Below are positions 5,983-62,565 of a stretch of 64,000 nt of DNA, in pieces (positions within the stretch are counted from its first letter, which is position 1; each line of letters opens with the position of its first letter). The notes beneath the pieces are model-generated. The model worked only from the letters and a program-made list of their open reading frames with translations. It made no database searches and was not told where the DNA came from. The position numbers and the translations under genes were made by a program. The stretch is from Deltaproteobacteria bacterium CG11_big_fil_rev_8_21_14_0_20_47_16 (GTDB taxonomy: Bacteria; UBA10199; GCA-002796325; 1-14-0-20-47-16), in the NCBI GenBank assembly GCA_002796325.1, contig PCXA01000018.1:206707-270706 (forward strand), given 5' to 3'.

Positions 5983-7056
5983 TTACTGATGAAACTCCAT
6001 TGCAAAATCACCAATTTGAATTTGGTCGCCTTCTGAAAGCACGTGTTCCTTCACGCGCTCACCGTTGACGTAGACACCGTTTGAACTTTGAAGATCCTCA
6101 AGAACAAACTCTTTTCCAGCTTGTCGAATAATGGCGTGCTGTCGTGAAATGCGCGCTTCCTTGAGGACAATGTGGTTTGTGTGTGCACGCCCAATGGTTG
6201 TTTCTTTACCAAGTGGGTATTTGGGGTTGTCCGATGCACCCCGTGTGACGGTTAAATAGGCAGTGCCAGGTTTAATACCCGGCGCTGTGGCAGAACTAAT
6301 ACTCGCCGAGCCCGTTGAAGTTGCATCTCCAGTATTTTGTCCAGGGGCAAAGACCTGGGTGCGTTGTGTGGGGGGAGGTGCGGGTGGTGGTGCGACGCCC
6401 GTTGGCCGCTCGCTGACATCATCCCCAGATGCAAAGTAGTCCTGTGATTTTTCTTGAGGTAGTTGGTAATCCTTTTTTGCGCCAGCCTTACTACGCCGTG
6501 CGGGTAGTGTTGATGTAGAACCTGTTGATGGACGCGGGGGGCTAGAAGATGGTGCTTTGACCGCTGCAGGTGTGGGTTGAGACGGTTCGAGCGGTTTTGG
6601 CGAAAAATCAGAAAAAAGCACCTCGTATTTTTTGATGTTGCCATTAATGGCATCAATAATTTTTTGAAACTTACCTAACTTATCCTTTGCTTCTTGTGTG
6701 CGTTCGGTGAATTCTGCTTCATCGAATTCGCCCAATTGTTTCCGGAATTCTAGTTCTTCAACGGCTGTTTTTTGAGTTTCAAAGTTAGTGGTTACTTTTT
6801 GACGTGTGTCGTACAAGGTAGCCAGTTCGCGATCGACTTCGGCCTTTTTCTCTAAAAGAGCCTTTGTGATTTCTTCAAACTTGGTACGATATTCACCGCA
6901 GACACGCTCATAGACTTGGGGGCTGACTTGATCTTTGGTGGCCTCAATCTTGGCCATACGCTCAGCGACCGTGCTGCGTTCTTGGCGAAGCTTTTCAGCC
7001 TCATCCAGAAGCGTTTGATTGATAGGGAACTGAACTTCCGCAGCATCACCGGCCAT
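5983..7056 (-). CDS. FHA-domain protein with N-terminal coiled coil
   Basis: A 357-residue cytoplasmic protein. Residues about 10-160 are charged, heptad-like and probably coiled coil. Residues about 165-255 are a Pro/Ser/Thr-rich linker. The C-terminal 95 residues form a forkhead-associated domain, a phosphothreonine-binding module, with the conserved landmarks TIGRAHTNHIVL, SRQHAII and SSNGVYVNGERV. The track uses a TTG at 7062, but the ATG at 7056 sits 7 nt after GGAGG on the minus strand and is preferred. No kinase gene is adjacent, so its phosphoprotein partner is unknown. Confidence 0.88.
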   Translation of the reverse strand: MAGDAAEVQFPINQTLLDEAEKLRQERSTVAERMAKIEATKDQVSPQVYERVCGEYRTKFEEITKALLEKKAEVDRELATLYDTRQKVTTNFETQKTAVEELEFRKQLGEFDEAEFTERTQEAKDKLGKFQKIIDAINGNIKKYEVLFSDFSPKPLEPSQPTPAAVKAPSSSPPRPSTGSTSTLPARRSKAGAKKDYQLPQEKSQDYFASGDDVSERPTGVAPPPAPPPTQRTQVFAPGQNTGDATSTGSASISSATAPGIKPGTAYLTVTRGASDNPKYPLGKETTIGRAHTNHIVLKEARISRQHAIIRQAGKEFVLEDLQSSNGVYVNGERVKEHVLSEGDQIQIGDFAMEFHQ

Positions 7057-7190
7057 GCACAATCCTCCACCTTCGTTTTAGCAAAATAACATAAAATTCA
7101 TTGTTTTTCAACAATTTGTTCAAGTCAATTGTGTGAATCCTCAGATATCACTTGAAGGGTTAAATGGCTCTAAAATAGGGCTTAGAGGGC

Positions 7191-7222
7191 AAAAAATAAC
7201 CCCCGGGCACTATGCCCGGGGG
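7191..7222 (-). terminator. Terminator-like hairpin in front of the FHA gene
   Basis: A perfect 10-bp stem (CCCCCGGGCA / TGCCCGGGGG) with a 3-nt loop. Read on the minus strand it is followed by TTATTTTTT, the layout of an intrinsic terminator. No minus-strand gene lies immediately upstream, so it could end a small RNA, attenuate the FHA leader, or block transcription coming back from the hemC side. Confidence 0.6.
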
Positions 7223-7301
7223 TCCAAGGGGGTTCATGGCCTCCACTTTTTTGGAGCGAAGGCATTACTGTATATAGTATCGGCGCGTAGGAGGCCTAAA
7301 G

Positions 7302-7330
7302 TTGCTTGTTTAAGTGATATTTAATAAAAT
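7302..7330 (+). promoter_or_regulatory. Candidate sigma-70 promoter for hemC-hemD
   Basis: TTGCTT (7302-7307), a 17-bp spacer and TAAAAT (7325-7330) lie in an A+T-rich stretch about 70 bp ahead of hemC. The match is good for a housekeeping promoter, but it was read by eye only. Confidence 0.45.
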
Positions 7331-7402
7331 TATTAAAAATCAAATAGTTATACCTATTTAATTTGCTTTGCCAGATGTGACGGGCTGAGGTAGGAGGGAT
7401 TT

Positions 7403-8305
7403 ATGTCACTTCCAAAACAACTCAAAATTGGTACCCGTGGTTCGCCCTTGGCGCTGTGGCAGGCCAATTGGGTGGCCTCTCAAATTCGTGCAAAGGCCCC
7501 TGAGACCCAGGTGGACTTGATTCAGGTGGTAACCTCTGGGGACCGATTGAAGGATGTCTCACTCAAGGATCAGGGTGGGAAGGGACTCTTTGTAAAAGAA
7601 ATTGAAGAGCAGCTTCTGGAGGGTCGTATTGATCTAGCTGTGCATAGTGTCAAGGATGTGCCAGGAAAATTACCGAAGGGGTTATTGCTGTCTGCAATTC
7701 TAGAACGCGCAGATCCGCGCGATGCATTTCTGTCACGTGTGGCAACATCACTCAAAGACTTGCCTCAAGGTGCAACGGTTGGCACCTCGTCACCACGGCG
7801 TATGGTTCAACTCAAACAGATGCGTCCAGACCTTCATATTGTTGAGTATCGTGGCAATGTGGAAACCCGCATGCGTAAAATGGAAGCAGGCGAAGTTGAT
7901 GCAACAATTTTGGCCGTTGCGGGTCTGGAACGACTGGGATTAACCGATCATATTTGTGATTACTTTAAAATTGAAGAAATGATTCCAGCGATTGGGCAAG
8001 GGGCTGTTGGTATTGAAACAAGGCATGACAATGCCGATTTGAATGTATGGCTTCAGGAAAACATCCATCATCGTGAAACAGGTCTTTGCGTTGCGGCAGA
8101 ACGTGCCTTGTTGTTGGCCATCGAAGGGGATTGTCATACTCCGGTGGCAGGTCATGCGCAACTGCATAGGGATGAGCTTCATATGTGGGCATGCTATGCC
8201 ACTCCAACGGGTGAGCGTGTTGTACACGTGGAGTCTGAGGGCCGTGCATTGTCACCAGAGCGCTTGGGTGAACATGTGGCGCAGGAGCTGCAATGTCAGC
8301 TGTGA
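7403..8305 (+). CDS. hemC: Porphobilinogen deaminase (hydroxymethylbilane synthase)
   Basis: Polymerises four porphobilinogens into hydroxymethylbilane. The 300-residue length is typical. The N-terminal substrate/cofactor segment TRGSPLALWQ, the catalytic Asp in VHSVKDVP (D85) and the dipyrromethane-carrying Cys244 in EGDCHTPV are all visible. A strong ribosome-binding site (GAGGTAGGAGGG) precedes the ATG. It overlaps hemD by 13 bp, giving a hemCD operon. Confidence 0.97.
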   Translation: MSLPKQLKIGTRGSPLALWQANWVASQIRAKAPETQVDLIQVVTSGDRLKDVSLKDQGGKGLFVKEIEEQLLEGRIDLAVHSVKDVPGKLPKGLLLSAILERADPRDAFLSRVATSLKDLPQGATVGTSSPRRMVQLKQMRPDLHIVEYRGNVETRMRKMEAGEVDATILAVAGLERLGLTDHICDYFKIEEMIPAIGQGAVGIETRHDNADLNVWLQENIHHRETGLCVAAERALLLAIEGDCHTPVAGHAQLHRDELHMWACYATPTGERVVHVESEGRALSPERLGEHVAQELQCQL

Positions 8306-9051
8306 GAATCTGTATCACATCCCCTCAGCCGGGTAATGACCGATTGGCAGCAATGCTCAAAAATGTTGGCTTGGATGTTTGGCAAATGCCTGTTTTGGAA
8401 TACGCTCCTCCGCATGATGATTATGCAGCGCTTGATCACGCGATTAATGAACTTTCAGTTTACCGGTACGTTGTATTTACAAGTCCCCATGCCGTGACGG
8501 TATTTTCAGATCGCCTTGCGGCCCATGGGGATGCACCTATCGCACACTTGCAATTTGCTGTTGTGGGGGAAGCGACTGCCAAGCTGTGTGCCGAGATGGG
8601 TTTTTCAGTGCATCACATTCCGACAAAATCAACAAGTCAGGCTTTAGGTGACTTGTTGCGTACCCAAGTTCCTTCAGGGAGTAAGGTTTTGTTTCCCCAG
8701 GTGGAAGCAGGGCGTCCAGAGTTTGTGGAAGCGATGGCACATTCAGATGCCAACGTGACAATTGTGGCTGCATATTCAACACAACCAACAAGTCTCGATG
8801 TTGGATATTGGAAGCGACAACTTAATGGGTCAGAGTGGCAGGGGCTTGTTGTAACAAGTCCTCGGGGTCTTCGTACATTTCTGGATGTGTTTGGTCATGC
8901 CTGGTGCCACGAGGTGATGGAGGTCCGTCCACTATTTGTAATGGGAGCAACAACGGCACAGAGTGCGGACTACTTAGGTTTTAGACATATTCAAATTCCA
9001 GAGCACAGTACTCTGGAATCTTTGAGTCGTTGCATCTCGGAGTATTTCTAA
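8293..9051 (+). CDS. hemD: Uroporphyrinogen-III synthase
   Basis: A 252-residue protein that cyclises hydroxymethylbilane with ring-D inversion. The family is poorly conserved in sequence. Support comes from YVVFTSPHAVTVF, the repeated half-domain layout (GLVVTSPRGLRTFL, VMGATTAQSA) and the position overlapping hemC by 13 bp. The 3' end overlaps the convergent secreted-protein gene by 4 bp. Confidence 0.92.
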   Translation: MSAVRICITSPQPGNDRLAAMLKNVGLDVWQMPVLEYAPPHDDYAALDHAINELSVYRYVVFTSPHAVTVFSDRLAAHGDAPIAHLQFAVVGEATAKLCAEMGFSVHHIPTKSTSQALGDLLRTQVPSGSKVLFPQVEAGRPEFVEAMAHSDANVTIVAAYSTQPTSLDVGYWKRQLNGSEWQGLVVTSPRGLRTFLDVFGHAWCHEVMEVRPLFVMGATTAQSADYLGFRHIQIPEHSTLESLSRCISEYF

Positions 9052-9800
9052 GGATTCTTGGGTTGATCAGAAGGTGGTGCGGGTGGTGGCTCAATAGTGA
9101 TAGTGCCTGAGCCATCAACCTCTGCACTACCAACGCTACTGTCCTTGACGGAGTATCGATTGATTGTAAACTTAGTGCTTGTTTTTTCGGTTTCAGAAAT
9201 AGGTACTAAGATATTATCCAAGCTGGGCTTTGCCTTTTGTAATGCATCAGAAATCCATTTTTCAGGTTCACCCTTAGTGTAAAAGCGACTGTCGGGTGCA
9301 TCAATAAATGTGCACAACGATTGCCAGTCTTCCAAAATTTTTTGTTTGAATTGAAGACCTAGCTTTATCGAAGTATCTCCATCCTCTGTGACCGTCATTT
9401 CATATGGAACGCCGGCGACATTGACTTGTAACAAGCATTGTCCCGATGTCCACTTGGCCAAGTATCCTTTAATTTCTGTTTTAATCGTTGCATTGCCGCG
9501 AATAAGTGCTGTCTTGGATACAATGACGCCGCTTAATCGAATACGATAAGTAACAGTGAAATTATCTGAGCTGGGAGCGGAGAAGAGATAGTGCAATTTC
9601 ACAGTGGCGTCCAAATCGACTAGTCGTTCCCCAGATTTTGGCTTGGGCGCAGCTGCTTGTGGCAATGCATCTTCGAAAAGTCCTTGATCAAATTCATCGG
9701 GAGGTGGGGGTGGTGGTGTTGGAGCGTCGTTAGCCGCATGGCAGACGTGCCAAGAGAGGGAAAGCAGTATCAAGACAATAAGGGCACGCATCACAGCCAT
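9048..9800 (-). CDS. Secreted protein of unknown function
   Basis: A 250-residue protein with a signal peptide (MAVMRALIVLILLSLSWHVCHA) followed by a Pro-rich spacer. The middle looks beta-strand rich (VKLHYLFSAPSS, VTYRIRLSGVIV), and it ends in a second Pro-rich tail. Two mature cysteines (GQCLLQ, SLCTF) may pair. I do not recognise a family. It is transcribed away from purB and overlaps the hemD stop by 4 bp. Confidence 0.75.
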   Translation of the reverse strand: MAVMRALIVLILLSLSWHVCHAANDAPTPPPPPPDEFDQGLFEDALPQAAAPKPKSGERLVDLDATVKLHYLFSAPSSDNFTVTYRIRLSGVIVSKTALIRGNATIKTEIKGYLAKWTSGQCLLQVNVAGVPYEMTVTEDGDTSIKLGLQFKQKILEDWQSLCTFIDAPDSRFYTKGEPEKWISDALQKAKPSLDNILVPISETEKTSTKFTINRYSVKDSSVGSAEVDGSGTITIEPPPAPPSDQPKNP

Positions 9801-21010: not shown

Positions 21011-21034
21011 TCGCCTCAAGACTTTTTCTAATGA

Positions 21035-21259
21035 CAACCAAATTTACCTCGCCGTCTCGCTCGTCGGGCACGACGTCGGTTTTTCGTTACGGCGAAAAAC
21101 CGCTTACCCTTCGCCTCTCGGCTACGGGTACTTCTTCGTCCACCCGCTACGCAGGTACCCGGACTCGGTCGTCACTCTCGCCGTGTGTGGCAAAGAACCA
21201 TGGATACACACAGCGAAGAGAGTCACACCGAAGCGAGACGGCGTCGTTAAATTTGGTTG
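21035..21259. repeat. Long imperfect hairpin repeat (shares a 40-mer with 57 kb)
   Basis: The ends are inverted copies: CAACCAAATTTA (21035) pairs with TAAATTTGGTTG (21248), and CGCCGTCTCGCT (21050) with AGCGAGACGGCG (21232). Inside are more hairpins, including CGGTTTTTCG-TTACGG-CGAAAAACCG, GGGTAC...GTACCC and an ACTCTC/GAGAGT arm. Bases 21039-21078 recur, reverse-complemented and identical, at 57067-57106. The element is about 225 bp, has no transposase gene, and looks like a non-autonomous MITE-type or REP-type repeat. Confidence 0.8.
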
Positions 21260-21261
21260 TA

Positions 21262-21366
21262 GCCAATGGCATTTTTGCCATCGTCATACGACTACGCTCA
21301 TAAACGCGCCTTGATACTCAGTACAACGTAGTTCTCCGAATGAAATGGCGAGCTCACTTGAGTGAA
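21262..21366. repeat. 105-bp dispersed repeat, copy 1
   Basis: From GCCAATGGCATTTTTG to GAGTGAA this matches 56942-57046 with five mismatches in 105 positions by eye. The other copy is the right arm of a longer hairpin, and here only that arm remains. It sits between the 225-bp hairpin and the mqnC 3' end. Together with that hairpin it fills the 400-bp gene-free stretch 21011-21412. Confidence 0.85.
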
Positions 21367-30917: not shown

Positions 30918-31124
30918 TCATCCTCCTCCAACAGCATGGACAATTTCCACGCGGTCCCCGGCAGTAATTTGTAGCTCTGCATGGTGTGATTTTGGGATAA
31001 TACGATCGTTAACGGCAACGGCAACACCCGTGACAGGGGCTTTTAAACTTTGTAGCAGCTGCAATACAGTTTGGGGCTGTGAGTACGCTTGGGGTTGACC
31101 GTTAATTGTAATGGTATCTGTCAT
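30918..31124 (-). CDS. thiS: Sulfur-carrier protein ThiS
   Basis: A 68-residue ubiquitin-like sulfur carrier. The C-terminus is the required Gly-Gly (HAVGGG), and [12 protein letters not shown] and [14 protein letters not shown] are typical. The codons for the terminal glycines (GGAGGAGGA) also form the Shine-Dalgarno of thiG. The ATG lies 5 nt after AAGGGA at the 3' edge of the TPP riboswitch. Confidence 0.95.
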
Positions 31125-31126
31125 TG

Positions 31127-31196
31127 CAATCCCTTCGGCGGCATTATCCGCATCAGGTTATGAGGGTATATTCTCAGCCCGCTGGGCACCCCTTGC
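31127..31196 (-). promoter_or_regulatory. TPP riboswitch (THI element) for thiSGC
   Basis: On the minus strand the sequence runs GGGGTGCC, GGCTGAGA, ACCCTC, AACCTGATGCGGATAATGCC and GAAGGGA, the conserved core of the thiamine-pyrophosphate aptamer. The terminal AAGGGA is also the ribosome-binding site of thiS, and P1 (GCAA/TTGC) closes right at the start codon. TPP binding should therefore hide the Shine-Dalgarno directly and stop translation, with no separate expression platform. Confidence 0.96.
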
Positions 31197-31204
31197 TCAA
31201 AATC

Positions 31205-55696: not shown

Positions 55697-56752
55697 ATGG
55701 CACATATCGCAGTAGGACAATGTTTTATCGTGGGGTTCGATGGCACAACGCCGCCACCCGATCTGATTCAACTCATTCGTGAAGAGGAAGTGGGTGCGAT
55801 CATTTTATTTCGTCGCAATATCGAGTCTGTTGATCAACTGCGTCGGTTAACATCACAACTTCAAGAAATTGCAGGTGGTAATTTGCTAATTGGGATCGAC
55901 CACGAAGGGGGGCGGGTTTTTCGCATGCCACCGCCGTTTACGCAAATCCCCAGCATGCGTGCTGTGGCAGCCTATGCCCAAAAATTTCCTGAAGAGCGCA
56001 TTGCGTACAAGTTAGGTCAGCTCATGGGCCGCGAGCTTTCTGCTGCGGGCATTCACATCAACTTTGCGCCAGTGCTGGATTTGGATACCAATGCGAATAA
56101 TCCTATTATTGGCGATCGTGCGTTTAGCGCGGATCCACTGCGTGTGGCCAACTTGGGCTGTGATTTGCTAGAAGGACATATGAATGTGGGGGTTGTGCCT
56201 TGTGGTAAACATTTTCCAGGGCACGGCGATACCTATGAAGATTCACATCATGCGTTGCCACACGTGCCACACACACCCGAACGCATGGACATTATGGAGT
56301 TGGTGCCATTCCGTGCGGCCATTCATCATGGAGTGCCCATGCTCATGACCGCGCATGTCGTCTATGAGGGATGGGATACGGAACGTCCTGCCACTTTATC
56401 ACCGCGCATTATTGAATCAGTGCTGCGTGATCAGTGTGAATTTGATGGTGTGGTCATTACAGACGATCTGCACATGCAGGGCATTGCCAAATTTTGGGAT
56501 GTGGGAACCGCATCGCGCATGGCACTCACTGCGGGATGCGATTTGTTGGCGGTTTGCCGATACCCCGAAACGGCGCGTCAGGGAATTGAAACCGTGAAAA
56601 ATGCGGTGGCTGATGGTCAGATTTTGGTGGAGCGTTTAGAAAAAAGTATTGCCCGCATTCAGTCACTCAAAAATATTCTCATATCTCCTGCGCCTGATGC
56701 CACATGCATCGGCTGCGCCTCCCACAAAGAACTGATTCGCAAAATTCTTTAA
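55697..56752 (+). CDS. nagZ: Beta-N-acetylhexosaminidase
   Basis: A GH3 enzyme that removes GlcNAc from anhydro-muropeptides during cell-wall recycling. KHFPGHGDTYEDSH (about 171-184) is the NagZ catalytic loop, and the nucleophile Asp about 256 lies in VVITDDLHMQGI. LIGIDHEGGRVFRM binds substrate. No signal peptide is present, in keeping with a cytoplasmic enzyme. The length (351) is standard. Confidence 0.95.
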   Translation: MAHIAVGQCFIVGFDGTTPPPDLIQLIREEEVGAIILFRRNIESVDQLRRLTSQLQEIAGGNLLIGIDHEGGRVFRMPPPFTQIPSMRAVAAYAQKFPEERIAYKLGQLMGRELSAAGIHINFAPVLDLDTNANNPIIGDRAFSADPLRVANLGCDLLEGHMNVGVVPCGKHFPGHGDTYEDSHHALPHVPHTPERMDIMELVPFRAAIHHGVPMLMTAHVVYEGWDTERPATLSPRIIESVLRDQCEFDGVVITDDLHMQGIAKFWDVGTASRMALTAGCDLLAVCRYPETARQGIETVKNAVADGQILVERLEKSIARIQSLKNILISPAPDATCIGCASHKELIRKIL

Positions 56753-56833
56753 TACGTACACCAGCGTTCGGTGACCAAACCCCAGCAGGCGTATGGCGCA
56801 GTTACGCTGGCGCTTGCCATTTCCTCCTCCGAC

Positions 56834-57012
56834 CCTACGTTGTACTGAGTGGCGCAATCGCTCCGTCATGACTCGACAAAAATGCCTTGGCCACAAAACG
56901 AGCTTGAATGTCCTCCTGCCTGTCGGCCTTCAATCTCGGTGGCCAATGGCATTTTTGCCATCGTCATACGACTACGCTCATAAACGCGCCTTAATACTCA
57001 GTACAACGTAGG
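56834..57012. repeat. 179-bp hairpin element with 17-bp perfect terminal inverted repeats
   Basis: CCTACGTTGTACTGAGT (56834-56850) is the exact reverse complement of ACTCAGTACAACGTAGG (56996-57012). Inner arms CAAAAATGCCTTGGCCAC (56877) and GTGGCCAATGGCATTTTTG (56939) pair with a single extra base, giving a long cruciform. The right half recurs at 21262. Upstream, CAGCAGGCGTATGGCGCAG (56780s) resembles CAGTAGGCGTATGGCGCAG near 63980. Confidence 0.85.
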
Positions 57013-57046
57013 TCTCCGAATGAAATGGCAAGCTTATTTGAGTGAA
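56942..57046. repeat. 105-bp dispersed repeat, copy 2
   Basis: Same sequence as 21262-21366 with five differences in 105. It includes the right arm of the 179-bp hairpin plus the following TCTCCGAATGAAATGGC segment, so the duplicated unit is larger than the inverted-repeat arm alone. Confidence 0.85.
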
Positions 57047-57052
57047 ACGAGT

Positions 57053-57111
57053 ACACCCAAATTTAGCGACGTCGTGCCCGACGAGCGAGACGGCGAGGTA
57101 AATTTGGGTGT
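57053..57111. repeat. 59-bp palindrome-ended repeat
   Basis: ACACCCAAATTTA (57053-57065) and TAAATTTGGGTGT (57099-57111) are perfect inverted repeats. Bases 57067-57106 are the exact reverse complement of 21039-21078 in the 21-kb hairpin. With the elements above it fills the gene-free stretch 56753-57290 up to the promoter at 57135. Confidence 0.85.
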
Positions 57112-57134
57112 GGTGGTTAGGTAAATTTACTGAT

Positions 57135-57163
57135 TTGGCGCGGGTTTAGGGTTGGTATATAAT
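57135..57163 (+). promoter_or_regulatory. Sigma-70 promoter for the orphan three-gene operon
   Basis: TTGGCG (57135-57140), exactly 17 bp, then a perfect TATAAT (57158-57163). It is followed by a leader of about 120 nt before the ATG at 57291. It lies just past the repeat cluster and is the best match to the housekeeping consensus that I found in the window. Confidence 0.65.
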
Positions 57164-57290
57164 TTGCTTATACATAGAGGGACTGGGGAATTCCGACTTG
57201 AGGGGTTCCTTGTAAGTTGTTGAAATATAAAGAAAACACCCATTTCAAGGTGGGGTGGGATGTCAATAAAACGACGGAAACTGGGGTATT

Positions 57291-58388
57291 ATGTCCGCAT
57301 TTGGGCCCAATGATTGGAAGTTAACAAAGCAAGTACCTGGTGCTGCGGGTACGGGCATTTTGCGTCCTGCAAGCGATGATCAAAAGCGTGGCGATAAAGG
57401 CCTGCCCAAGGATCAGAGACCGCCCGCTAAACCAGAGCCTTCGCACAATGCCAAAGCAGGGCCAGCAGTACATGCACAGCCAAAAACTGGTGCAGCTGGG
57501 ACACGAGCAACAGCCGATTCCAAGGTAATTCCAAAAGCAGAAACACACGGCGAAACGCCAGTGGCACACGGAGAAGGACGCTCAACCACTGGAACAGCGC
57601 AACAACATCAGACAGATCCTCATAAGCATTTTTTGCATTCTCAAGGTCAAAATAAACAATTGGCCCAACTGTTGCGTGGGGGGCAACCTGCACAAGCTAC
57701 AAAGCCGCCACCCCAAGGGTCCTTTACGGCAATGATGCACCCTGATGCAAAAGGGACAGCCTCGGCATTATTGACGAAGCCATTTGCGAAGGCGCCAGTG
57801 CCTTCTAAACAACCAGGTAAACCCACTGTAACGCTGCAACCCAGTGTTCCGACAACACCAGGTGAAGAGGCGCAAAGTGGTGTGCAAGAACAGATGGTGG
57901 CGCAAAAAACGCCACCCCCATTTGTTGAGAAGCCCACGACAAAACGTGGTGAACGTCGGGAAGAAGTGAAATCAAATCGTGATACATCCGATACCTTGGG
58001 GCGCGTCCTGGCAGGTGCAGCGGACAAGCGTGTTGGTGGTGTGGGGTCGCAGGTATTTGGTGAAGGTGGCTTTGGTGGATTTAGTGATGGTGCCCAGGAA
58101 GAATATGGCGATCTGTCACAGTTGTCGGGTGCAGGTCCAATGCCGCACTTGCCCGTTGTCCTGGATAAGAGTTTGCAGGATCCCCGTTTTGCAGAGGCCA
58201 CAAAGGGGATGTATCATGCATTGGGATTGTCTTATACGGTGAGTGGTAAACAAGAAATTTATGCGCAAGTTGCTGTGGATGTGAAGATGGCCAACGAAAC
58301 ATATGTCGGAATATCTGAACGCGCACCGGATGTGCCCGTTGGTGCAGCGTATATTACGGCGAATGGTCGCGGAAAGGTGATTGCATAA
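57291..58388 (+). CDS. Orphan Pro/Ala/Gln-rich protein (operon gene 1)
   Basis: A 365-residue protein with no signal peptide or membrane segment. Residues about 15-240 are low complexity (Pro, Ala, Gly, Lys, Gln), probably disordered. A Gly-rich stretch (GGVGSQVFGEGGFGGF) leads to a compact C-terminal domain of about 85 residues (LPVVLDKSLQDPRFAEATKGMYHALGLSY, EIYAQVAVDVKMANETYVGIS). The N-terminus MSAFGPNDW recalls the MSF/MAFG openings of the next two genes. No family is recognised. It overlaps the next gene by 1 bp. Confidence 0.8.
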   Translation: MSAFGPNDWKLTKQVPGAAGTGILRPASDDQKRGDKGLPKDQRPPAKPEPSHNAKAGPAVHAQPKTGAAGTRATADSKVIPKAETHGETPVAHGEGRSTTGTAQQHQTDPHKHFLHSQGQNKQLAQLLRGGQPAQATKPPPQGSFTAMMHPDAKGTASALLTKPFAKAPVPSKQPGKPTVTLQPSVPTTPGEEAQSGVQEQMVAQKTPPPFVEKPTTKRGERREEVKSNRDTSDTLGRVLAGAADKRVGGVGSQVFGEGGFGGFSDGAQEEYGDLSQLSGAGPMPHLPVVLDKSLQDPRFAEATKGMYHALGLSYTVSGKQEIYAQVAVDVKMANETYVGISERAPDVPVGAAYITANGRGKVIA

Positions 58389-59863
58389 TGAGTTTCATTT
58401 CACCATGGGGGATGTCAGTGTGGCAGTCACCATTTGTGAACGTGACATCCGAGACCTATTCATCAGCGGAAACGGTGGGTAGTTGGACCTGTGCATGGAA
58501 TAGTCCCATTGGTGGATTTTCAAGTGGCTATGGGCATGGTGGTCATTCGCTGTGCCGTCCTGGTGAATATCAGCCCGGTTGGGCCAATCGATTTTTTAAT
58601 AATGATGCGCCAACGCCCCAACAGTCCCGTGAGTATGATCGTGATCCGGGTACGCGTGCCCAACGGTATGTGAATGCGGCCTATTCTCAAAAATGGAATC
58701 AACAATTACAGAAGTGGGAGAAGGCCACCGCCTATGATGCGTATTCCAGCAATCAACATGCGGCGCGCAGTGAAGATGCACGGCGTGATGGCACTGAAGG
58801 TTATGATGAAGAGATGATGTGGCTGGCGGACTCCTCAAAAGAATGGATGAACAATGATCAAAAGCGCATGGATTTTTTCCACGCAGTGCAAGAAATGGGC
58901 GGCACACCTTACGGAAATGGTGTGAAGGCAGCGCTGGCCAATTTAATTGCGCCGGGATCGACATCTGTGACTGATGATGTGGGCGGTGAGCTCGCAAAGC
59001 ATTTGAGGGCTTCTGAAAAACCAGCGGGCGAGAAGACAGCGGATGCTTATATGAATGCGTACATTGCCAAGTTGGGTGGCGAAGCGAAGGTGTGGGAATG
59101 GCTGCGCCCCATGCTCGATGCCGTGTGGCAACAGGCACAAGCCCGTGGCGGATATTCACAGCCACAATCCACCAGTGATTACAAAAATGATCTGCGCAAA
59201 AAAGGACTTAGCGCGGATGAAGCGGCGATCGTTGCAGACACAGCACTTGCTGGAAAGAAAGACTATAACGCGCGCAAAATTGTGGCGGACTTTACTGATT
59301 TAACCCACTTGCCCAATATGATTGGCGACGATGAAAAGAAACGCAAGCGCCACGAACAGATTTGTGTTGCCGGTCTCAAGGCGCTTGGTGTGTCAGATGA
59401 TGGTCAGATCAATAAATATTACGCCCAGATCCAGGAGAAAATTCAGAAAGCAGCCAATAGCCAGAAACCAGTCTACGATTTTGCCGCGTTCATGAAAGAA
59501 GCGAAGCGCATGGTGGATGCAGGTGAAGCGCCAAGTGATTCGCAGTCGGCTGCGGCTTCGCCTGCACAAGCGCCTCAGGCCGGGGCTGGGCACCGTGGTG
59601 GTCGAGGGCACCGTCGTACAACGCCCACAGCGTCTGAGATGCAAAAGCTCCGGGCACTTGCTGCGAAGCAAAATGCACATCAACCCCTAACACCAGATGA
59701 GCAGCAATTTGTGGCCAATATGCAAAGGCGGTTCCCAGCACTATTTGAGCCGGCACCTGCTGCACCCAGTGCAACACCGGGTGCGCCAGCAAGTGGTGGT
59801 GGAACAGTCAGTAATTTATTGAATGGTGCCCGAAATTATTTGGGCAATTTGTTTGGACTTTAA
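58388..59863 (+). CDS. Orphan 491-residue protein (operon gene 2)
   Basis: A Trp/Gly/Ser-rich N-terminus (FISPWGMSVWQSPF, GGFSSGYGHGGHSL) is followed by a helical charged body (about 90-370; GGTPYGNGVKAALANLIAPG, LGGEAKVWEWLRPMLDAVWQQA). Then come an Ala/Pro/Gly linker, a short helical segment (SEMQKLRALAAKQNAHQPLTPDEQ) and the tail NGARNYLGNLFGL. There is no signal peptide or membrane helix. The helical body suggests a structural or chaperone-bound secreted protein, but that is a guess. Confidence 0.8.
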   Translation: MSFISPWGMSVWQSPFVNVTSETYSSAETVGSWTCAWNSPIGGFSSGYGHGGHSLCRPGEYQPGWANRFFNNDAPTPQQSREYDRDPGTRAQRYVNAAYSQKWNQQLQKWEKATAYDAYSSNQHAARSEDARRDGTEGYDEEMMWLADSSKEWMNNDQKRMDFFHAVQEMGGTPYGNGVKAALANLIAPGSTSVTDDVGGELAKHLRASEKPAGEKTADAYMNAYIAKLGGEAKVWEWLRPMLDAVWQQAQARGGYSQPQSTSDYKNDLRKKGLSADEAAIVADTALAGKKDYNARKIVADFTDLTHLPNMIGDDEKKRKRHEQICVAGLKALGVSDDGQINKYYAQIQEKIQKAANSQKPVYDFAAFMKEAKRMVDAGEAPSDSQSAAASPAQAPQAGAGHRGGRGHRRTTPTASEMQKLRALAAKQNAHQPLTPDEQQFVANMQRRFPALFEPAPAAPSATPGAPASGGGTVSNLLNGARNYLGNLFGL

Positions 59864-59875
59864 AAGGAGTCGGTT

Positions 59876-61390
59876 ATGGCATTCGGAATTAATCCATTAG
59901 TAGGTGGCCTGAGTTTCGGTGGTGGTATGGATGTATGGGACACCATGAACCTGGGTGCCCAAGCCACAGGGACACCGGGTTATGGATTTTCATTGATGCC
60001 ATCGGGTGGCATGGCATTTCCCACATATGGATTTGGGGCTCCGCGTACCAGTTATTGGGGAAGTTCAGACTTTCGAGGTGTGGCGGACATTGCGATCGGA
60101 TCCAATGATCTGCAACGCGGTACCTATGGCTTGGGTGGATTCGGTGGATATGGTGGGTTTGGATCACCAATGATGGGTGCTTTTAACATGGCCTATCCGT
60201 TTAGTAATTTGGGCCCGATGATGGCGCAACTGGCAGAGAACTTGGCGCCGGCTTCATTCCCTACGTATGCTGCGGGTCCCGCCAATGCTGTAACGCCGTC
60301 TGCACCACCGCCTCTTGCGTCAGAGCCAGCTACCCAAAATCCAGCACCTGATGTTGAAAAGGATGCATCTGCTTCCCCAGCTTCAACAACTGGTACCAGT
60401 GCTGCGTCGGGTACTCCGGCTGCGGGACATCGTGTGGATGAAGCCAAAGTGCGCCGTGACTTTAATGTGCCCGGCGTAAACGTCTTGGGTGTAACCGATG
60501 ATGGTCGTGTACGCATTAAGCCGGATGCCAGTTATGATCCGGCGGCATCCAGACGTGAATTGGCGTCGAGTTTACGCAAACTGAAACGTGATGGCGTGAA
60601 GGATGTCATTGTAGGGGATACGGGTACGACAGCGATTCCTGTGCAGGCGCGTACGGGGAGCAGGAGTGTTCCTGTAATGGAGACAAAACCCGATGGAACA
60701 AAGGTGCCAAAAATGGATGCGGCGGGTCGTCCGGTCACAAGACGTGTGCCAAGTTATGGGCCCAACACACGGGCTGTATCAGATGCACTGAATGCGGCAA
60801 AGCCATCTGCGGCACCGGCATCATCGCCATCAAGTGGGACAAGCGTGCCACCACGTGCTGCAGCAGGAGCAGGCAGTGGTACAGCGGGAGGACCTCCACC
60901 AGCTGCTCCAGTTGTACCGCCCCCAGTGCCAGCGCCGACACCACCAGCAGGTAGCCGTGCAGCAGGCGCTGCACCAGCACCGTCGAGAGCTGCATCGAGA
61001 GGCGCTGTTCCAGCACCGTTTGTGCGTAACGCCGCTGCAGCAGCAGCAGATCGTAGTCGTGCAGATGAAGTTATGTACCAGGCGTGGATGTCGCGTGCAG
61101 TCGCGCGTGCCAATTTAAAGGGAAGTGGTGATGCCCATATTGAGCGGCGCGGTAATCGCAATATTTTATCAATTCGAGTTAAAGATTTTGCGTCAGGTTT
61201 TGCTCTTGTGCGTGCCTTGAGTGAAAGGCCCCCCGCCAATAAGCCGGTCGCTATTGAACTGGTTGCACAAAATCCAGATGCCAACTCAGCAGCGCAAAAC
61301 ATTGCAGGTATTGTGAATGAACGTATTGCAAAAGGGAACACCCCATGGAATGCCGGTAGCACGATTCTGGTAGTTAAAAGGGATAGCTAA
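59876..61390 (+). CDS. Orphan Gly/Ala/Pro-rich protein (operon gene 3)
   Basis: A 504-residue protein starting 7 nt after AAGGAG. The N-terminal 115 residues are Gly/Phe/Tyr/Met-rich (GLGGFGGYGGFGSPMMG). A compact domain at about 185-300 (FNVPGVNVLGVTDDGRVRIKP, LKRDGVKDVIVGDTGTTAIP) is followed by a long Ala/Pro linker (about 310-390). The C-terminal alpha/beta domain spans about 395-504 (ILSIRVKDFASGFALVRALSERP). It has no signal peptide. GM-x-VW near the start is shared with gene 2. Confidence 0.8.
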   Translation: MAFGINPLVGGLSFGGGMDVWDTMNLGAQATGTPGYGFSLMPSGGMAFPTYGFGAPRTSYWGSSDFRGVADIAIGSNDLQRGTYGLGGFGGYGGFGSPMMGAFNMAYPFSNLGPMMAQLAENLAPASFPTYAAGPANAVTPSAPPPLASEPATQNPAPDVEKDASASPASTTGTSAASGTPAAGHRVDEAKVRRDFNVPGVNVLGVTDDGRVRIKPDASYDPAASRRELASSLRKLKRDGVKDVIVGDTGTTAIPVQARTGSRSVPVMETKPDGTKVPKMDAAGRPVTRRVPSYGPNTRAVSDALNAAKPSAAPASSPSSGTSVPPRAAAGAGSGTAGGPPPAAPVVPPPVPAPTPPAGSRAAGAAPAPSRAASRGAVPAPFVRNAAAAAADRSRADEVMYQAWMSRAVARANLKGSGDAHIERRGNRNILSIRVKDFASGFALVRALSERPPANKPVAIELVAQNPDANSAAQNIAGIVNERIAKGNTPWNAGSTILVVKRDS

Positions 61391-61431: not shown

Positions 61432-62565
61432 ATGGAAATCACACTCATTGTCATCTCTTTCGTTTTGCTCGGTGGTGCAGTAGCAATTTGGCTGCGTTCC
61501 CGGAAACCCCAAGTCGATTCCAACCTTCAATTGATGCAACAGGTCCAACAACTGCAAGGTGAGTTGGGTCGTGCCTTGGAAGCCAACGCGCAGACCGTGA
61601 ATCAGCAAATGGCGGCATTGCAGGGGCAGATTGCACAAAGCCTGCAACATCAATCCACAATCCTACAATCCACCAACCAGGGTCTGTCGACACGCATGGA
61701 CACGACCACACAGTCGCTCAATCACCGATTGGATGCGGCAGCACGGGTTATTGGTGAGGTTAAAAATGAATTGGGGAAAGTTTCTACGAGCATGAAAGCT
61801 GTTTCAGAAATTCAGGATATATTAAAGGCCCCCAAATTGCGGGGTGGTTTTGGCGAAATCTTTCTAGGAGACTTATTGGAACAGATTTTGCCGCGTCGCT
61901 ATTTGCTCCAGCATCGCTTTCGCAACGGGACTGCTGTAGATGCAGCGGTTATGTTGGGGGATAAATTGATTCCCATTGATTCCAAGTTTCCTTTGGAAAA
62001 TTTTACCAAAGCCAGTGCTGCTGAAGGGGATGATGCACGGAAGCTTGCGCGACGCCAGTTTGCAACAGATGTGCGCAAACATATTGATGCAGTTGAAAAA
62101 TATATTTTGCCTGACGAAAATACATTTGAGTTTGCGCTGATGTATATTCCTGCCGAAAGTATTTATTACGAAGTGGCTGTTAAGAATGACTGGGGAACCG
62201 AAGATCGGCCAATCCTGGAATATGCGTTGCGTAAGAAAGTCATTCCAGTGTCCCCGAACACGCTCTATGTCTATTTATACACAATCAGTCTGGGGCTGCG
62301 TGGCATGGCTGTTGAAAAAAATGCGCAGCTTGTGATTGATCGCATGATTCGTCTGCAAAAAGAGATTACCCGATTCCAAGACGAATTTGGCAGGGTGGGC
62401 ACCCATTTGACCAATGCAGCCACGGCTTATGCCAAGACGGATAAACGGTTGGGGGTTATTACCGAGCGTATGCGTGTGTTTTCACCCGAAGAATCGGTTA
62501 GCGAGTCTGATACAGCTGATGCGATTGAATATACTGCGCCACCGGTTCTGGGACCAGGGCAGTAA
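61432..62565 (+). CDS. rmuC: RmuC-family DNA recombination protein
   Basis: A 377-residue protein with an N-terminal membrane anchor (LIVISFVLLGGAVAIWL), a coiled coil (about 30-120) and the RmuC nuclease-like core (LRGGFGEIFLGDLLEQILPRRYLLQ, IPIDSKFPLENF, YIPAESIYYEVA, VIPVSPNTLYVYLYTISLGLRG). RmuC limits recombination between inverted repeats in E. coli. The 3' end overlaps the convergent nadD by 68 bp. Confidence 0.93.
   Translation: MEITLIVISFVLLGGAVAIWLRSRKPQVDSNLQLMQQVQQLQGELGRALEANAQTVNQQMAALQGQIAQSLQHQSTILQSTNQGLSTRMDTTTQSLNHRLDAAARVIGEVKNELGKVSTSMKAVSEIQDILKAPKLRGGFGEIFLGDLLEQILPRRYLLQHRFRNGTAVDAAVMLGDKLIPIDSKFPLENFTKASAAEGDDARKLARRQFATDVRKHIDAVEKYILPDENTFEFALMYIPAESIYYEVAVKNDWGTEDRPILEYALRKKVIPVSPNTLYVYLYTISLGLRGMAVEKNAQLVIDRMIRLQKEITRFQDEFGRVGTHLTNAATAYAKTDKRLGVITERMRVFSPEESVSESDTADAIEYTAPPVLGPGQ

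What the first reader, a model, noticed from the sequence alone, without database searches (positions are those of the whole stretch)
57135..61390. Three-gene operon of large, low-complexity orphan proteins behind a near-consensus promoter
Seen: three collinear genes (365, 491 and 504 codons) with 1-bp and 12-bp junctions, good ribosome-binding sites and a TTGGCG-N17-TATAAT promoter. All lack signal peptides and membrane helices, and combine disordered Gly/Pro/Ala regions with small compact domains. The first residues look alike (MSAFGPNDW, MSFISPWGMSVW, MAFGINP). Inference: they may form one system, for example substrates or scaffold of a secretion or assembly machine. This is my best candidate for an undescribed system.
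Basis: partly seen in the sequence, partly recalled or inferred. Interest (0 to 1): 0.75.

Follow-up and report, generated by a model that had tools for sequence, protein, structure and literature searches.

The report
Fast-evolving disordered-protein operon
Three tightly linked genes make large, mostly unstructured proteins that match nothing in the databases, but the same slot between nagZ and rmuC holds similar fast-changing genes across a whole class of uncultured bacteria, so this is a real, conserved and undescribed locus, possibly of proteins exported by a secretion machine that the entire class carries.

Summary
In detail: three real, collinear ORFs (365, 491, 504 codons) with 1-bp overlap and 12-bp gap. 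Pfam, NCBIfam, PHROGs, PDB and 45 other class genomes give no homologue to single-sequence searches. Synteny does. In 29 of 39 class genomes where the slot is readable (15 of 20 families), nagZ is followed by a disordered orphan gene 'A', and in about 15 by a coupled gene 'B', in several genomes running straight to rmuC. Gene 2 is homologous to the closest relative's B (z about 9, 25% identity). That relative's A belongs to the class-wide A family (z about 6). Gene 1 is A by position, plus weak N- and C-terminal similarity. Gene 3 is a second B-type protein by its aromatic/Gly-rich N-terminus only. A and B diverge far faster than nagZ/rmuC. The claimed resemblance of the three N-termini is not significant, and the promoter-like site is within chance counts. 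Every class genome carries type III secretion genes, non-flagellar here. Export of A/B by that system is my preferred but unproven mechanism (about 0.3): N-termini show no shared signal and the system is too universal for co-occurrence tests. Verdict: real, undescribed, class-restricted hypervariable locus; function open.

The parts
57135..57163 (+). sigma-70-like promoter match TTGGCG-N17-TATAAT
   Evidence: best of 6 sites, 6.3 expected by chance; directly downstream of a dispersed palindromic repeat
57291..58388 (+). gene 1 = 'A'-type protein, 365 aa, disordered, sole Trp at residue 9 (NDWKLT), small C-terminal segment
   Evidence: (N-term p 0.02, C-terminal 85 aa p 0.002 against A family); position between nagZ and a gene-2 homologue as in L099/L154
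58388..59863 (+). gene 2 = 'B'-type protein, 491 aa, aromatic/Gly-rich N-terminus, helical middle part
   Evidence: homologue in nearest relative L154:8381-9835 (z 9.2, phmmer E 0.0017, 25% identity); N-terminal 120 aa 17% F/Y/W
59876..61390 (+). gene 3 = second 'B'-type protein, 504 aa, F/Y/W/G 38% in the first 120 aa, two small alpha-beta domains (residues 185-310 confident, 380-504 weaker)
   Evidence: pLDDT 85-91 for about 190-240; no significant PDB match
61432..62565 (+). rmuC, conserved right-hand anchor, 41 bp behind gene 3
   Evidence: PF02646 3e-52; 39 of 46 class genomes
55697..56752 (+). nagZ-like beta-N-acetylhexosaminidase, conserved left-hand anchor
   Evidence: 40 of 46 class genomes; gene A follows it in 29 of 39 readable cases. 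Name from sequence knowledge (KHFPGHGDT motif), not from a family scan
56755..57130 (.). dispersed palindromic repeat elements between nagZ and the operon
   Evidence: (z -9.5; 49 matches in own genome, five of 190 bp or more)

Best explanation
Shown: genes 1 and 2 (and by composition gene 3) are the local version of a class-restricted, fast-evolving locus of low-complexity proteins kept between nagZ and rmuC: an 'A' protein (Ala/Pro/Gly/Lys-rich, without Sec-type signal or membrane helix, small C-terminal part) coupled to one or more 'B' proteins (aromatic/Gly-rich N-terminus, helical or alpha-beta part). [quoted passage not shown] How B's sticky aromatic/Gly-rich ends and A's stalk-like disorder would assemble is conjecture. 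The confidence given is for the whole statement with the export step; for the conserved-locus part alone I put about 0.85.
For: Slot occupancy: 29 of 39 readable genomes, 15 of 20 families have a low-complexity orphan directly behind nagZ on the same strand; in about 15 a B gene follows, mostly with overlap or a gap below 45 bp. Gene 2 - G004_B z 9; G004_A - A family z 5.9; gene 1 - A family p 0.002-0.02, DWKLT shared with G017_A, sole Trp N-terminal in 8 A proteins. A and B diverge faster than the anchors, e.g. nagZ 74% and A 45%, rmuC 83% and A 46%, nagZ 69% and A 28%. No hydrophobic N-terminus in A. SctV/FlhA or SctR/FliP in 46 of 46 class genomes; own SctV passes the SctV cut-off and fails the FlhA cut-off, with SctJ, SctN, SctL, SctO, SctP and SctQ homologues around it. 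Needle, tip and translocon proteins are known to evolve quickly and to escape similarity searches (PMC3459982).
Against: No physical link of A/B to T3SS genes; no convincing A/B homologue in T3SS loci by phmmer. N-termini of A/B are no more like those of SctP/SctI than of control genes. Families f2, f10, f15, f18, f21 have the T3SS but no A gene behind nagZ. Gene 3 has no demonstrable homologue; gene 1's membership rests on position and weak signals (z 0.3-1.7).
Confidence: 0.33

Rival explanations
1. A and B are cytoplasmic scaffold or condensate proteins: multivalent aromatic/Gly-rich B segments and Lys/Pro-rich A proteins self-assemble and organise a cell-envelope, peptidoglycan-recycling or nucleoid process.
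For: No Sec signal or membrane helix; aromatic/Gly-rich N-termini in all 12 B proteins of the six A-core families (F/Y/W/G 0.22-0.38 against background maximum 0.19); locus neighbours are peptidoglycan recycling and nuclease-like genes.
Against: Very fast divergence is unusual for a housekeeping scaffold; adjacency to nagZ/rmuC need not be functional; in several relatives a glutaredoxin gene on the other strand separates the locus from rmuC.
Confidence: 0.3
2. The slot is an insertion-tolerant site that independently gathers unrelated low-complexity orphan genes; resemblance between families is only composition.
For: Between distant families A proteins are not alignable above shuffles (f12, f13, f17, f19, f4 z near 0); Pfam finds nothing shared.
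Against: Homology is demonstrable within and between f9, f14, f20, G004_A to them (z 5.9), gene 2 to G004_B (z 9); A-B order and coupling recur; single-Trp N-terminal pattern.
Confidence: 0.2
3. Mobile or prophage cargo, or spurious ORFs.
For: Orphans without relatives; dispersed palindromic repeats lie directly upstream.
Against: No PHROGs hit, no viral contig, host-like codon usage, housekeeping neighbours, class-wide slot.
Confidence: 0.04

Closest known systems
Tip/translocator and other secreted proteins of non-flagellar type III secretion systems (LcrV, YopB/YopD class)
   Same: No Sec signal, rapid divergence, co-transcribed sets, carrier class has a universal T3SS
   Different: No sequence or fold match, no membrane-spanning segments as in YopB/YopD, not next to T3SS genes, no chaperone gene in the operon
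SctP/FliK needle- or hook-length regulators
   Same: Gene A has a similar layout: short N-terminus, long Pro/Ala/Lys-rich disordered part, small C-terminal part
   Different: No Flg_hook (PF02120) match; the genome has its own SctP in the T3SS cluster (L239:14873-15664, PF02120 6e-5)
Myxococcus xanthus needleless T3SS* (PMC12075869) and the Myxo NF-T3SS group (PMC3459982)
   Same: NF-T3SS cluster in a lineage filed as Deltaproteobacteria; no secretin or classical needle was recognised among the genes I annotated
   Different: The class cluster carries a FliG-like gene, which the Myxo group lacks according to PMC3459982, and a sigma-28-like gene; whether it is the same group was not tested by phylogeny, nor were secretins searched genome-wide
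BON / ring-building-motif (alpha-beta-beta-alpha-beta) domains, e.g. OsmY, DolP, FliF
   Same: Gene 3 domains 185-250 and 380-464 have this order of elements in the model; OsmY, FliF and DolP appear in the Foldseek list
   Different: All matches insignificant (E 0.6-1.8, probability 0.10-0.30)

Membership tests
Class-wide nagZ-rmuC 'A' family | lies directly behind nagZ on the same strand, before B | tested here: met
Class-wide nagZ-rmuC 'A' family | gene 1 scores above local shuffles against the family profile | tested here: not met
   z 0.3 to 1.7 (G004_A z 5.9)
Class-wide nagZ-rmuC 'A' family | N-terminal W element as the only Trp, and similarity of both ends to other A proteins | tested here: inconclusive
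   sole Trp at residue 9; N p 0.02, C-terminal 85 aa p 0.002, but the last 30 aa alone p 0.69
B family | gene 2 homologous to the B gene of the closest relative | tested here: met
B family | gene 3 homologous to any B gene | tested here: inconclusive
   only composition; profiles z -1.2 to 1.4; single z 4.4 to G022_B
T3SS substrate | N-terminal signal shared with other substrates of the same machine (SctP, SctI) | tested here: not met
   gene 1 z -0.1 and 0.2; A mean z 0.6, control genes -0.3 to 0.5
T3SS substrate | secretion dependent on the machine | not testable with these tools
   needs cells or metaproteomics
T3SS substrate | gene linked to T3SS genes or chaperone | tested here: not met
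SctP/FliK | C-terminal PF02120 domain | tested here: not met
BON / ring-building domain (gene 3) | significant sequence or structure match | tested here: not met

The most novel reading that the evidence does not exclude
A previously undescribed, class-defining assembly made by hypervariable disordered protein pairs (stalk-like A, sticky aromatic/Gly-rich B) that works as an extracellular or contact apparatus, alone or mounted on a class-universal type III export machine that still carries flagellar-type parts.
Probability: 0.2. Interest if true: 0.8.

Novelty: new variant of a known kind. Interest (0 to 1): 0.5.

Why it matters
It shows that apparent single-genome orphans are the local face of a class-wide locus that diverges beyond recognition while its neighbours stay alignable. 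If A and B are exported, they would be candidates for the missing distal or surface parts of a universal type III system in an uncultured class, and point to a contact-dependent lifestyle.

Tried and rejected
Single-sequence homologue searches in 46 class genomes for each gene gave only self and chance hits (e.g. the gene-1 hit in G042 is antisense to cysS). Genome contigs and viral-contig scans with gene 2: none. A genome-contig scan with an rmuC alignment returned 80 loci, of which only G004 carries the locus. Co-loss of T3SS and gene A as a test: impossible, since the T3SS is universal (G032 and G045 lack SctV hits but have SctR). Profile of the A family in 193 genomes finds only f9, f14 and f20 members. 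AlphaFold model of gene 2 with two sequences: mean pLDDT 43, useless. Foldseek of gene 3 against PDB and viral library: nothing significant. Idea that A N-termini share the SctP/SctI N-terminal signal: negative. Idea that A-lacking families keep A in the T3SS cluster: none seen.

Full report
Observation. The three ORFs are exactly as described: 57291-58388, 58388-59863 and 59876-61390, + strand, 365/491/504 aa, 1-bp overlap and 12-bp gap. In-frame codon usage equals that of neighbouring genes and is negative in the other frames, so they are genes. They lack signal-peptide-like or membrane-type hydrophobic stretches. Two supporting details do not hold up: promoter-like sites in the region are no more frequent than in shuffles (6 against 6.3), and the similarity of the first 20 residues among the three proteins is not significant (p 0.15-0.38).

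Known families. Pfam, NCBIfam and PHROGs give nothing; PDB sequences give nothing usable for genes 2 and 3; scanning 22 A-slot and 19 B-slot proteins individually gives no widely shared Pfam family. Direct protein searches in 46 genomes of the class find only the own genome; the weak hits I inspected are antisense or chance. The only named relative recovered is contig JACPFG010000052.1, 'Deltaproteobacteria bacterium NC_groundwater_355_Ag_B-0.1um_58_8', whose A and B proteins are identical to those of G004 of the genome search.

Synteny. I searched with the flanking genes. rmuC and nagZ occur in 39 and 40 of 46 class genomes, often a few kilobases apart on one strand. Reading the intervals shows that nagZ is followed on the same strand by a low-complexity orphan ('A', 142-567 aa) in 29 of 39 readable genomes, spread over 15 of 20 families; it is absent from the slot in f2, f10, f15, f18, f21 and in one f5 genome; seven genomes are unreadable there (nagZ missing, or at a contig end). 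These counts are my own reading of the ORF maps. In about 15 genomes (f1, f3, f5, f9, f12, f14, f20) a 'B' gene follows A, mostly with overlap or a gap below 45 bp (longer gaps in two f12 genomes), i.e. as a coupled pair.

Homology tests, with local shuffles to remove composition effects. Gene 2 against the B gene of the closest relative: z 9.2, phmmer E 0.0017, 25% identity over the alignment. The relative's A gene against the A-family profile: z 5.9. Gene 1 against that profile: z 0.3-1.7, i.e. not shown by profile; but its N-terminal 35 residues (p 0.02) and C-terminal 85 residues (p 0.002) are closer to A proteins than shuffles are, it shares DWKLT with G017_A, and in it and seven other A proteins the only Trp of the protein lies within the first 26 residues. 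The last 30 residues alone show nothing (p 0.69). Gene 3: profiles negative; a single z of 4.4 with G022_B, among many comparisons. By composition genes 2 and 3 are both B-type: F/Y/W/G in the first 120 residues 0.26 and 0.38, all 12 B genes of the six core families 0.22-0.38, 19 other window proteins mean 0.14, maximum 0.19; all A proteins have F/Y/W at or below 0.05 there. The A-family profile searched in 193 genomes finds only f9, f14 and f20, so the family diverges beyond profile detection across families.

Rate. Between pairs of genomes A and B diverge much faster than their flanks: nagZ 74% and A 45%; rmuC 83% and A 46%; nagZ 69% and A/B 28%; here nagZ/rmuC 55-56% and A/B 26%. Identities near 26-28% for A include what composition alone gives, so they are upper bounds.

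Structure. Gene 2 with its one homologue gives an all-helical, low-confidence model (mean pLDDT 43). Gene 3 folded alone gives a confident domain at residues 185-310 (block means about 65-91) and a weaker one at 380-504; both begin helix-strand-strand-helix-strand, the order of BON and ring-building domains. Foldseek lists OsmY, FliF and DolP, but nothing is significant (best E of any match 0.2), and viral structures neither. I treat this as a hint only.

Mechanism. PF00771 is present in 44 and PF00813 in 42 of 46 class genomes, at least one in all 46. In the own genome the PF00771 protein passes the SctV cut-off (778 over 692 bits) and fails FlhA (679 below 772), and its neighbourhood holds homologues of SctJ, SctN, SctL, SctO, SctP and SctQ, a FliG-like and a sigma-28-like gene (SctJ scores below its NCBIfam cut-off), followed by sctR, S and T genes (PF00813 for sctR; the others from sequence and order); the same cluster recurs in the relatives read. 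So the class carries a T3SS throughout, non-flagellar where I read it. Proteins without Sec signals that evolve very fast and come as coupled sets fit exported, target-facing proteins; needle, tip and translocon proteins are known to evolve quickly, and tip and translocon homologues may be missed by similarity searches for that reason (PMC3459982). But three tests give no support: no convincing A/B relatives inside T3SS loci, no shared N-terminal signal with SctP/SctI, and T3SS without A in five families. I therefore keep T3SS export as the preferred mechanism at about one third, with a cytoplasmic scaffold/condensate close behind.

Novelty. As a gene family it is undescribed in the libraries searched and restricted, as far as seen, to one class. 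As a mechanism it would be a new variant of secreted, fast-evolving type III substrates if the preferred reading holds; the categorically new reading (an own assembly) is not excluded and is given under the novel case.

Noticed in passing
L239 (own genome C2:86000-105500) and L262, L264, L267-L282: Class-wide T3SS cluster with FHA/SctD-like, SctJ, sigma-28-like, SctI-like, FliG-like, SctL/N/O/P/Q and SctR/S/T genes, and sctV beside secA; no secretin recognised among the genes annotated. A non-flagellar T3SS with FliG-like and sigma-28-like genes may be an early-branching type worth a phylogeny.
   Followed up: partly
window 56755-57130, also 21034-21078 and 21259-21366: Dispersed palindromic repeat family: large imperfect hairpin (arms 56812-56850 / 56996-57033, fold z -9.5) with five copies of 190 bp or more and many partial, mosaic copies in the genome.
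   Followed up: partly
window 31112-31203 (-): TPP riboswitch (RF00059, 67.9 bits).
   Followed up: no
L238:8505-11591: 1028-aa protein with a low-complexity 'MAVDPTKPGGGSPVIPP' N-terminus, a metallo-beta-lactamase domain and cNMP-binding domains, upstream of recN in the own genome.
   Followed up: no
L099:5237-7207 (-): In the closest relative a further large orphan (656 aa, one strongly hydrophobic stretch) lies upstream of nagZ.
   Followed up: no
L239:6617-6892, 6956-7480 and 8913-9389: Three conserved small orphan genes of the T3SS cluster (91, 174, 158 aa) without database matches; candidates for needle, rod or translocator parts.
   Followed up: no
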